Assembly: GCF_003711805.1 (NCBI RefSeq)
Contig: NZ_QXCP01000004.1
Coordinates: 248,001 to 312,000, forward strand
Reading direction: 5' to 3'
From: Brachybacterium sp. EE-P12
GTDB lineage: Bacteria; Actinomycetota; Actinomycetes; Actinomycetales; Dermabacteraceae
DNA length: 64,000 nt
In this document: positions 31,645 through 33,366 of the stretch, one piece after another
How the letters are laid out: every line of letters begins with the position of its first letter
How positions within the stretch are numbered: position 1 is the stretch's first letter
Notes under the pieces: model-generated
What the model was told of the DNA's origin: nothing
The model's database searches: none
Seen by the model: the letters and a program-made list of their open reading frames with translations, nothing else
Program-made: the position numbers and the translations under genes

Positions 31645-32355
31645 ATGGACATCGGCGAGATCATCGACGCGTTCGGAGGGCGCCTCGCGCCCGGACCCGT
31701 CCCGGACGACGGGCCCTGGATCCTGCTCGCCCTGGCCGTCGCGGCGCTCGCCGTCGTGGTGCCGCCGCTGTGGCGGCTGCTGCGGCCGGGCGTGACGATC
31801 GTGCACGAGCTCGGCCACGCCCTGGTCGGGATCCTCATGGGCAGGCGCTTCACCGGCTTCGTCGTCTCCGCCGACATGTCCGGGCACGCTGTGACCGTCG
31901 GCCCCCGCCGCGGCATCGGCCGGATCCTCTCGACCTGGGCCGGCTATCCCGCGCCAGCGCTGCTCGGCGCCCTGCTCGTGCAGATCGCGCTGCACGGCTG
32001 GGCGCGCACGGCGCTGTTCGCCGCGCTCTGCGTGCTCGTGCTCTCGCTGGTCTTCACCCGCTCCGGGCACACCCTCCTCGCCGTCCTCGCGAGCGCCGCC
32101 GGGATCGGGGCGCTGTGGTGGTGGGGCAGTCCCGCGCTGACCGCCCTGCTCACCCTCGCCGCCGGCGTGTTCCTGCTGCTCGGCGCGTGGCGCCACCTCG
32201 GCGCCGTCGCCCGACGGGGCGGCCGCCAGGACGATCCCGGTCAGCTCGCCCAGCTCACCCCGCTGCCCGCCGCGCTGTGGACGGTCAGCTTCGCGCTCGT
32301 GATCGGCCTCGCCACCTGGTGGGCGGGGGCCACGCTGGTGGCGCTGCTGCGCTGA
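31645..32355 (+). CDS. M50B-type membrane zinc metalloprotease-like protein
   Basis: 236 residues with about six membrane helices. The zinc-binding motif HELGH appears in PGVTIVHELGHALVGILMGR, followed by a G/R-rich stretch (VTVGPRRGIGRILSTWAGYP), matching the M50B-like family of actinobacteria. Members are assumed to cleave within or near membranes, but substrates are unknown. A second M50 motif (NxxPxxxxDG) is not obvious, so activity is uncertain. The ATG lies six bases after CACCAT. Confidence 0.8.
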   Translation: MDIGEIIDAFGGRLAPGPVPDDGPWILLALAVAALAVVVPPLWRLLRPGVTIVHELGHALVGILMGRRFTGFVVSADMSGHAVTVGPRRGIGRILSTWAGYPAPALLGALLVQIALHGWARTALFAALCVLVLSLVFTRSGHTLLAVLASAAGIGALWWWGSPALTALLTLAAGVFLLLGAWRHLGAVARRGGRQDDPGQLAQLTPLPAALWTVSFALVIGLATWWAGATLVALLR

Positions 32356-32398
32356 GCCGCGGCGGGGATATTCCCTCGCCTCGCGTGCCCGCCTCCTC

Positions 32399-32404
32399 TA
32401 CCGT
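32399..32404 (+). promoter_or_regulatory. -10 box of the erm leader transcript
   Basis: TACCGT lies seven bases before the leader-peptide ATG, so transcription should begin at or next to that ATG. An AT-rich patch (GATATT, 32368-32373) lies just upstream of where a -35 would fall. WhiB7-controlled promoters have such a patch, but the match is too short to claim WhiB7 control. Confidence 0.5.
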
Positions 32405-32411
32405 GGCGCCC

Positions 32412-32459
32412 ATGGGCATCATGACCATGTCGTTCTTCGTCCGGATCCGCCGTCGCTGA
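32412..32459 (+). CDS. Erm leader peptide (ribosome-stalling regulatory ORF)
   Basis: A 15-codon frame, MGIMTMSFFVRIRRR, ends 103 bases before erm. Leader peptides that stall the ribosome when a macrolide is bound often carry an Arg/Lys-x-Arg/Lys motif (as in ErmDL). Here Arg11-Ile12-Arg13 fits, and those codons (32442-32450) form the first arm of the downstream hairpin. The start lies seven bases after TACCGT, so the mRNA would be leaderless. Shorter in-frame starts at 32421 and 32427 keep the same ending. Confidence 0.8.
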   Translation: MGIMTMSFFVRIRRR

Positions 32460-32524
32460 CGGCGCGGATCCGCACCTCGACCCCTCCAGGCTCCGCGCCG
32501 CCCCGGTCCACCGCCGGGCGGCGC
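32442..32524 (+). promoter_or_regulatory. Erm attenuator: two hairpins with an alternative pairing
   Basis: Segment 1 (32442-32454) pairs with segment 2 (32458-32472) over 13 base pairs with a two-base bulge. Segment 3 (32495-32503, GCGCCGCCC) pairs perfectly with segment 4 (32516-32524, GGGCGGCGC). Segment 2 can instead pair with segment 3: CGGCGCGGA (32460-32468) is complementary to TCCGCGCCG (32492-32500). A ribosome stalled on the Arg-Ile-Arg codons would cover segment 1 and favour the 2:3 pairing, removing hairpin 3:4 upstream of erm. This is the classical erm design. Confidence 0.8.
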
Positions 32525-32562
32525 TCCATGCTGCCCGGCTCCCGCACGTCCGAGGAGCCCCC

Positions 32563-33366
32563 ATGCCCCGCACCCCGCATCACCCCCGCCCCGGCGCCCA
32601 TGAGCTGGGCCAGAACTACCTGCGCGATCGCCGCACCGTCCGCCGCGTCGTCGAGCTCGCGGGCCGCACCCGCGGCCCGCTCGTCGAATGGGGCGCCGGG
32701 GACGGCGCCCTGACCCTCCCGCTCTCCGGGCTCGCCCGTCCGCTCGAGGCCGTGGAGATCGACGAGCGCAACGTCGCACAGCTGCTCCGCCGGGTACCCG
32801 CACACGTCACCGTGCGCTGCACGGACATCCTCCGCCACGCCCCGCCCGCGGGATCGACGCTCGTGGCGAACCTGCCCTTCCACCTCACCACCCCGGCCCT
32901 GAAGCACCTGCTGCGCTCGCCGGGCTGGCTCGACGCGGTGCTCATCACCCAGTGGGAGGTGGCGCGCAAGCGGGCCGGCGTCGGCGGCGTGACCATGCTC
33001 ACCGCCCAGTGGGCGCCCTGGTTCACCACCCGCCTGGAGGGACGGATCCCGGCCGATGCCTTCCGGCCGAGGCCCGCCGTCGACGCCGGGCTGCTCGTGC
33101 TGCACCGGCGCGAGCAGCCCCTGCTGCCCGCAGGCCGCCGCCGGGCGCACCATGACCTCGTGCGACGTGTGTTCACCGGACCCGGTCGAGGCCTCGAGCA
33201 GATCCTCCGCCGCACCGGGATGCCCGCCCCCGCGGTCGCGTCCTTCCTCGACCGTCACGGCTACGACCGCCGCGGCCTCCCGCGTGACGTGGACCCGGAG
33301 CACTGGGCGGAGCTGCTCGGTACGGAGCGCGGCAGGGGCGTTGGCGCGCGCAGGCGGCGGGGGTGA
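32563..33366 (+). CDS. erm: 23S rRNA adenine N6-methyltransferase, Erm family
   Basis: 267 residues. Erm enzymes methylate the adenine equivalent to A2058 of 23S rRNA and so block macrolide, lincosamide and streptogramin B binding. The N-terminus HELGQNYLRDRRTVRRVVEL, SAM motif I (VEWGAGDGALTLPL, residues 41-54) and target-base motif NLPFHLTT (103-110) are all present. ITQWEVARKRAGVGGVTMLT, then AQWAPW, is typical of actinobacterial Erm proteins. GAGGAG (32552-32557) precedes the ATG. The tail is Arg/Gly-rich. It is preceded by a leader peptide and attenuator. Confidence 0.93.
   Translation: MPRTPHHPRPGAHELGQNYLRDRRTVRRVVELAGRTRGPLVEWGAGDGALTLPLSGLARPLEAVEIDERNVAQLLRRVPAHVTVRCTDILRHAPPAGSTLVANLPFHLTTPALKHLLRSPGWLDAVLITQWEVARKRAGVGGVTMLTAQWAPWFTTRLEGRIPADAFRPRPAVDAGLLVLHRREQPLLPAGRRRAHHDLVRRVFTGPGRGLEQILRRTGMPAPAVASFLDRHGYDRRGLPRDVDPEHWAELLGTERGRGVGARRRRG

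What the first reader, a model, noticed from the sequence alone, without database searches (positions are those of the whole stretch)
32399..32562. Leaderless stalling-peptide attenuator in front of erm
Seen directly: TACCGT seven bases before a 15-codon ORF (MGIMTMSFFVRIRRR), hairpin 1:2 (32442-32472), hairpin 3:4 (32495-32524), and an exact 9-base complement between strands 2 and 3 (32460-32468 with 32492-32500). The Arg-Ile-Arg codons lie in arm 1, so a ribosome stalled there would open hairpin 1:2 and let 2:3 form, removing 3:4 upstream of erm. The +x+ stalling motif is known from other erm leaders. New here are the exact leader sequence and its leaderless transcription, which would make the first initiation event itself drug-sensitive.
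Basis: partly seen in the sequence, partly recalled or inferred. Interest (0 to 1): 0.8.

Follow-up and report, generated by a model that had tools for sequence, protein, structure and literature searches.

The report
Leaderless stalling-peptide switch before erm
In front of a macrolide-resistance methyltransferase gene lies a tiny gene that seems to begin at the very first base of the message and to make the ribosome stall when macrolides are present, refolding the RNA so that the resistance protein is made; the same unusual layout recurs in front of most related genes that were checked in other actinobacteria.

Summary
TACCGT (32399-32404) ends seven bases before the 15-codon ORF MGIMTMSFFVRIRRR (32412-32459), and all three pairings exist. 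The genus is Brachybacterium. The layout is conserved: 77 of 90 actinobacterial erm loci have a short Arg-X-Arg-type leader with TANNNT 6-8 nt (65 at exactly 7) before ATG/GTG; controls gave 0 of 79 inside erm and 0 of 79 antisense. Three of 115 leaders have a Shine-Dalgarno core. Published WblC/WhiB7 promoters start 7-8 bp after such a -10, i.e. on the leader start codon. With a ribosome parked on codons 9-12 the cost of opening the Shine-Dalgarno falls from about 8.5 to 5-6 kcal/mol; at the stop codon it does not. A post hoc test over 56 loci gave P=6e-7; an earlier, differently defined test gave P=0.19. Drug-sensitive initiation has no support. New variant of a known kind: a leaderless macrolide-sensing leader, widespread in the phylum. 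Stalling and transcription start remain inferred.

The parts
32367..32372 (+). GATATT, WhiB7/WblC-like AT box 3 bp upstream of the -35 (published motif GAAAWY; 5 of 6 match)
   Evidence: sequence; AT-rich box at this position relative to -10 in 30 of 45 nonredundant loci; motif from PMC7157823 and PMC10727445, passages read
32376..32381 (+). probable -35 (TCGCCT), 17-bp spacer to -10; several relatives have TTGCC there
32399..32404 (+). -10 element TACCGT (TANNNT), 7 nt before the leader start codon
   Evidence: TANNNT at spacing 6-8 in 77 of 90 loci, 65 at exactly 7
32412..32459 (+). leaderless leader ORF MGIMTMSFFVRIRRR, predicted transcription start at 32412; Arg-Ile-Arg = codons 11-13
32442..32455 (+). 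arm 1 (Arg codons), pairs with 32460-32472
   Evidence: 92.8% of cells paired in 16 loci
32460..32472 (+). arm 2, directly after the stop codon; 32460-32468 also pairs with 32492-32500 (2:3)
32492..32506 (+). arm 3; 32492-32500 pairs with arm 2 (ON) or 32495-32506 with 32511-32524 (OFF)
32511..32524 (+). arm 4; pairs with arm 3 (OFF) or 32513-32522 with 32530-32539 (ON)
   Evidence: (4:5 99.4% of cells paired in 16 loci)
32530..32542 (+). arm 5; 32537-32542 (GGCTCC) pairs with the erm Shine-Dalgarno, 32530-32539 pairs with arm 4
   Evidence: 5:6 of at least 6 contiguous pairs in 15 of 16 loci
32553..32559 (+). arm 6: Shine-Dalgarno AGGAG of erm plus CC; the paired GGAGCC is 32554-32559
32563..33366 (+). 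erm, 23S rRNA adenine methyltransferase, 267 aa
   Evidence: NF000499 215.3 bits over cut-off 212; PF00398

Best explanation
This is a macrolide-inducible translational attenuator with a leaderless sensor peptide. A WhiB7-type promoter starts transcription at, or within a base of, the first base of the leader start codon, so ribosomes load on the 5' end without a Shine-Dalgarno. Without drug the ribosome runs to the stop codon and the RNA folds as 1:2, 3:4 and 5:6, hiding the erm Shine-Dalgarno. With a macrolide or ketolide the ribosome stalls around Arg-Ile-Arg, occupying arm 1; arm 2 pairs with arm 3, arm 4 with arm 5, and the Shine-Dalgarno becomes easier to reach. Shown: sequence features, their conservation, and the computed switch. 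Inferred: transcription start, WhiB7 binding, drug-dependent stalling, and induction.
For: Conservation of -10 spacing and leader: 77 of 90 loci; 67 of 79 upstream against 0 of 79 inside erm and 0 of 79 antisense; 47 of 55 erm places in a sample of the order, of which 12 are also among the 90. No Shine-Dalgarno at leaders, 3 of 115, against 110 of 112 erm starts, the erm start having been chosen with a preference for one. The base before the start codon is C in 42 of 46 nonredundant loci, 35 of 35 at spacing 7, as expected for a transcription start there. Published WblC promoters have TANNNT with the start 7-8 bp downstream (PMC7157823, passages). Position scan of the window RNA: cost of opening the Shine-Dalgarno 8.1-8.5 kcal/mol with codons 6-8 in the P site, 5.2-5.6 with codons 9-11, 6.1 at codon 12, 8.5-8.7 at codons 13-15. 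56 loci: mean release 1.29 against -0.02 in shuffles, 47 of 56 above their null mean, 22 of 56 at 0.05 or less. Contiguous 2:3 complement at 0.05 or less in 22 of 59 loci.
Against: A first, differently defined folding test (free RNA against stall) was not significant over 56 loci (P=0.19; 11 of 56 at 0.05 or less); the measure was chosen. On 23 further loci the effect is mixed: 14 above their null mean, 9 at 0.05 or less, and two plasmid loci (erm(50), erm(51)) raise the mean. For the window locus alone the shuffle fractions are 0.03 and 0.06. Among 16 close loci the helices hardly vary, so covariation neither supports nor refutes them (one double change in each, no better than shuffled columns). 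Duplex energy of 2:3 exceeds shuffles in only 1 of 59 loci. Even in the ON model 5:6 pairs keep probability near 0.8. With Ile12 in the P site the release nearly vanishes if the ribosome edge is put one base further. Thirteen of 90 loci lack the leader at spacing 6-8. No transcript or toeprint data.
Confidence: 0.76

Rival explanations
1. The leader controls erm by transcription attenuation or by mRNA stability rather than by freeing the Shine-Dalgarno: a stalled ribosome alters a termination (possibly Rho-dependent) or cleavage event in the stretch of about 93 nt between leader stop and Shine-Dalgarno.
For: The 4:5 hairpin sequence is very conserved; a number of loci, the long-spacer ones among them, show no Shine-Dalgarno release; whiB7 itself is known to use transcription attenuation (PMC10727445 introduction, passage).
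Against: No terminator-like stem with a T run in 32300-32650; 4:5 forms in the stalled state, the wrong logic for a terminator; Shine-Dalgarno release at the motif position exceeds shuffles overall.
Confidence: 0.15
2. The leader is translated from a message with a short or longer 5' UTR (start further upstream, or readthrough from the upstream M50 gene), so it lacks a Shine-Dalgarno but is not leaderless.
For: No start mapping; the upstream gene ends only 56 nt before the leader; 12 of 77 loci have spacing 6 or 8 instead of 7.
Against: Sharp spacing peak at 7: 65 loci against at most 12 at any other spacing from 0 to 35; C before the start codon in 35 of 35 nonredundant loci at spacing 7; no Shine-Dalgarno at leaders.
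Confidence: 0.1
3. Induction is purely WhiB7-driven and the leader is a passive or decaying remnant.
For: AT box and -35 fit the WhiB7 pattern; a whiB7 homologue with an AT-hook is in the genome; one relative, L010, seems to have lost leader start and -10.
Against: Leader peptide and motif are retained across genera with changing sequence; motif position coincides with the computed switch window.
Confidence: 0.08

Closest known systems
ermC / ermB / ermD-type macrolide-inducible erm leader peptides
   Same: Short leader ORF, drug-dependent stalling motif (Arg-X-Arg as in ErmDL, PMC8298421, passages read), alternative structures that expose the erm Shine-Dalgarno (ermC, PMC6685928, passage)
   Different: No Shine-Dalgarno before the leader and predicted start of transcription at the leader's first base; six-arm chain; WhiB7-type promoter
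Leaderless poly-cysteine attenuator sORFs of mycobacteria (Canestrari 2020, not held; known here only through a passage of the review PMC9031893, and the earlier proposal in PMC4633059, passages)
   Same: A leaderless short ORF acting as attenuator of a downstream gene in an actinobacterium
   Different: Senses cysteine supply, not a drug; no Cys run here
whiB7/wblC uORF attenuators
   Same: Antibiotic-responsive uORF in actinobacteria (PMC4128351, and PMC10727445, passages read)
   Different: Those have a Shine-Dalgarno-led uORF (mycobacteria) and a rho-independent terminator; here neither was found
ermE of Saccharopolyspora erythraea, leaderless methylase mRNA (Bibb 1994, seen only as a reference title)
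   Same: Translation without a conventional ribosome-binding site at an erm locus
   Different: There the methylase mRNA itself lacks the site; here the sensor peptide is leaderless and erm has a Shine-Dalgarno

Membership tests
Erm 23S rRNA methyltransferases | Score over the curated family cut-off | tested here: met
   NF000499 215.3 bits, cut-off 212; no specific Erm class reached its own cut-off
Inducible erm leader (translational attenuation) | Short leader ORF with a known stalling motif just upstream of erm | tested here: met
   Arg-Ile-Arg at codons 11-13; leaders with Arg/Lys-X-Arg/Lys conserved
Inducible erm leader (translational attenuation) | Alternative pairing that hides or frees the erm Shine-Dalgarno | tested here: met
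   By computation only: this locus; across loci, not significant and mixed
Inducible erm leader (translational attenuation) | Drug-dependent stalling and induction | not testable with these tools
   Needs toeprinting and a reporter
Inducible erm leader, ermC-type | Leader translated from its own Shine-Dalgarno (recalled for ermC) | tested here: not met
   No Shine-Dalgarno core before this leader; 3 of 115 leaders have one
Leaderless transcript | Promoter spacing that puts the start of transcription on the start codon | tested here: met
   TANNNT at 7 nt; start 7-8 bp after -10 in WblC promoters
Leaderless transcript | Mapped 5' end at the start codon | not testable with these tools
   No transcript data
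WhiB7/WblC-activated promoter | AT box, -35, TANNNT in the published register | tested here: inconclusive
   This locus: GATATT, 3-bp gap, weak -35 TCGCCT, 17-bp spacer; AT box in register in 30 of 45 nonredundant loci; binding untested
Transcription attenuator (whiB7/ermK type) | Intrinsic terminator with a T run before the gene | tested here: not met
   None in 32300-32650
Poly-Cys leaderless attenuator | Run of Cys codons | tested here: not met
   MGIMTMSFFVRIRRR has no Cys

The most novel reading that the evidence does not exclude
Leaderless initiation is part of the sensor. Undissociated 70S ribosomes, already carrying macrolide, load directly on the 5' start codon, so the leader samples drug occupancy of the 70S pool with no Shine-Dalgarno competition. 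This, combined with a WhiB7-type promoter that itself answers ribosome stress, is the general and probably ancestral two-input control of erm genes across Actinomycetota, including plasmid loci such as erm(X), erm(36) and erm(55).
Probability: 0.25. Interest if true: 0.82.

Novelty: new variant of a known kind. Interest (0 to 1): 0.63.

Why it matters
Textbook erm induction comes from Firmicute leaders that have their own ribosome-binding site. If actinobacterial erm genes use leaderless sensor peptides under a WhiB7-type promoter, inducible macrolide resistance in this phylum starts from a different initiation pathway and has two inputs. Gene finders that rely on Shine-Dalgarno motifs would miss these leaders, and studies of leaderless translation would gain a natural drug-controlled switch with a simple read-out.

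Tried and rejected
Rfam search of 32200-32800: no family at E up to 1. Transcription terminator: none. Duplex-energy test: 1:2 beats shuffles (0.05 or less) in 27 of 59 loci, 2:3 in 1 of 59; the test lets gapped GC-rich helices through, so contiguous complement was used next (1:2 in 12, 2:3 in 22, complement to the Shine-Dalgarno region in 9 of 59 at 0.05 or less). First switch test not significant over all loci; replaced by a position-based measure, chosen after seeing the scans, then tried on 24 other loci of which 23 could be scored. Covariation among 16 close loci: uninformative. One slip: the AT-box count used 45 of the 46 nonredundant loci because L065 was left out of a typed list. Loci without an identifiable Shine-Dalgarno or start could not be scored in the folding tests. 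Phylum sample: 27 places in 26 of 396 genomes at E up to 1e-22, many of them KsgA-like by their N-termini (judged by eye; the planned family search failed). Of the five with the HELGQN signature four have the leader (L001, L119, L169 at spacing 7, L130 at 6) and L168 has none.

Literature: ten searches of the open library. I saw capped listings (for example 20 of 29, 20 of 144, 20 of 31, 10 of 16, 12 of 54 and 10 of 414 papers); in what was listed no title or abstract start dealt with leaderless erm leader peptides. The whole-word search for erm, leader peptide and leaderless together returned 5 papers, four unrelated by title and one (PMC4128351) read in passages. Most subscription papers are not held, so absence is weak.

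Full report
OBSERVATION. The gene downstream is an Erm (NF000499, 215.3 bits over cut-off 212; PF00398), 85% identical to its nearest relative in the genus and below 60% to the best place in each of 911 plasmid records. Upstream lies an M50B-like peptidase gene and downstream a lipase maturation factor gene.

LEADERLESS START. Fourteen of 38 genus genomes carry an erm match with E at or below 1.2e-60. I added 80 erm loci from the species-genome collection, the best 80 of a longer list; four duplicate genus loci, leaving 90. A leader was defined by peptide content alone (ATG/GTG, 7-35 codons, Arg/Lys-X-Arg/Lys in the last eight residues, ending more than 30 nt before the erm match). Over all candidate starts TANNNT peaks at 7 nt before the start (65 of 90 loci), against 0-12 loci at any other spacing from 0 to 35; 77 of 90 lie at 6-8 (65, 7 and 5 at 7, 6 and 8), and 46 of these remain after removing similar promoters (75% identity). 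Controls on the genome-collection loci: 67 of 79 upstream, 0 of 79 inside erm, 0 of 79 on the antisense strand (one of the 80 dropped because its contig ends early). In a sample of the order, 54 of 396 genomes gave 55 erm places at E up to 1e-40, and 47 of 55 have the feature under a slightly wider definition (His allowed, last nine residues); 12 of the 55 are also among the 90. The eight without it include three with a leader-like ORF lacking Arg-X-Arg (L136, L138, L145) and two with a degenerate -10 at the same spacing (L123, L127, by eye). Leaders lack a Shine-Dalgarno core (3 of 115) while erm starts have one (110 of 112); the erm start was chosen with a preference for such a core, so only the leader figure is unbiased. 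The base before the start codon is C in 42 of 46 nonredundant loci, 35 of 35 at spacing 7. Published WblC promoters in Streptomyces coelicolor have GAAAWY, TKGMNN, a 16-19 bp spacer, TANNNT and most starts 7-8 bp downstream (PMC7157823, passages); M. abscessus WhiB7 sites have an AT box 3 bp upstream of -35 (PMC10727445, passages); M. tuberculosis starts favour a purine flanked by C at -1 (PMC3898074, passages). The erm promoters show an AT box in that register in 30 of 45 nonredundant loci, against 0-6 at positions away from it. The genome has a WhiB7 homologue by its AT-hook (RGRGRPRK, L159). Of seven plasmid loci, six of them named erm classes, erm(X), erm(36), erm(55) and the Nocardioides locus fit the definition; erm(46), erm(50) and erm(51) have a short ORF with TANNNT at 6-7, but erm(46) has no Arg-X-Arg and erm(50) and erm(51) have theirs in the middle.

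SWITCH. For the window RNA the free transcript folds as 1:2, 3:4 and 5:6, where 5:6 covers the erm Shine-Dalgarno. A fragment that stands for a ribosome masking arm 1 (first free base 32456) folds as 2:3 and 4:5; fragments with first free base 32462 or 32471 fold as 3:4 and 5:6. Scanning ribosome positions with an edge of +16, the cost of opening the Shine-Dalgarno is 10.2 kcal/mol for free RNA, 8.1-8.5 with codons 6-8 in the P site, 5.2-5.6 with codons 9-11, 6.1 with codon 12 and 8.5-8.7 at codons 13-15. So the computed ON window covers the approach to Arg-Ile-Arg up to Ile12, the place where such motifs stall (middle residue in the P site for ErmDL, PMC8298421, passages). At codon 12 the effect depends on the assumed ribosome edge: one base further and it is nearly gone (first free base 32462).

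ACROSS LOCI. In 62 loci, close relatives included, a drop of 2 kcal/mol or more from stop-codon position to the better of two motif positions occurs in 26 and the reverse in 0. Against shuffled spacers, 56 loci (mean of the two motif positions) give 1.29 versus -0.02, 47 of 56 above their null mean, 22 of 56 at 0.05 or less, Wilcoxon 6e-7. This measure was fixed. The earlier measure (free RNA against motif position, edge one base further) gave P=0.19 with 11 of 56 at 0.05 or less, 7 of those 11 with Arg-Ile-Arg. On 23 scoreable further loci the mean is 1.13 versus 0.05, 14 above null, 9 at 0.05 or less; the long-spacer group is mixed and erm(50) and erm(51) are the strongest. The contiguous 2:3 complement passes 0.05 in 22 of 59 loci with different sequences in different clades. 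In the 16 closest loci pairs are kept (2:3 and 4:5 98.7% of cells; 1:2 92.8% and 3:4 88.5%; 5:6 in 15 of 16), but nearly without variation, so covariation is uninformative.

VERDICT. The idea that initiation itself becomes drug-sensitive has no support. Stalling, transcription start and WhiB7 binding remain inferred. As a kind, macrolide-sensing leader peptides with Arg-X-Arg are known, and leaderless attenuator ORFs are known for cysteine; the combination was not seen in the capped listings of ten searches of the open library, which lacks most subscription papers.

Noticed in passing
L160 (G000:C4:398800-400300): A second erm in the same genome, of the ErmE/ErmO/ErmS group (NF000337 315.3 bits, cut-off 320; NF000499 256.1 over cut-off 212), with what looks like the end of an IS transposase gene just upstream; no Arg-X-Arg leader found by the same scan.
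   Followed up: partly
L159 (G000:C18:764804-764956): whiB7 homologue with AT-hook; upstream there is an AT-rich promoter-like stretch and a short ORF that by eye looks Shine-Dalgarno-led, in contrast to the erm leader.
   Followed up: partly
window 32563-33366: The Erm passes the broad family cut-off but no named class, and is below 60% identical to the plasmid Erm proteins found: probably an unnamed erm class.
   Followed up: partly
L078, L085, L095 and L055, L072: Leaders with repetitive N-terminal parts: Cys/Ala-rich repeats in Streptomyces, Met-Asn-Ala repeats in Promicromonospora.
   Followed up: no
L122, L124-L126, L128, L131-L133, L139-L141, L143, L144, L146, L148, L150: Unnamed same-order genomes with leaders ending in variants of IRDRRA or IRHRSA and 270-324 nt from leader start to erm start, about twice the usual distance; computed Shine-Dalgarno release is mixed there.
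   Followed up: partly
L187, L190: Two distant erm-like genes have an ORF with TANNNT 7 nt before ATG and an internal RLRT motif, not counted as hits because the motif is not near the end.
   Followed up: no
L010: A genus relative that keeps leader-like coding sequence but has no start codon or TANNNT in place: a possibly decayed leader.
   Followed up: no
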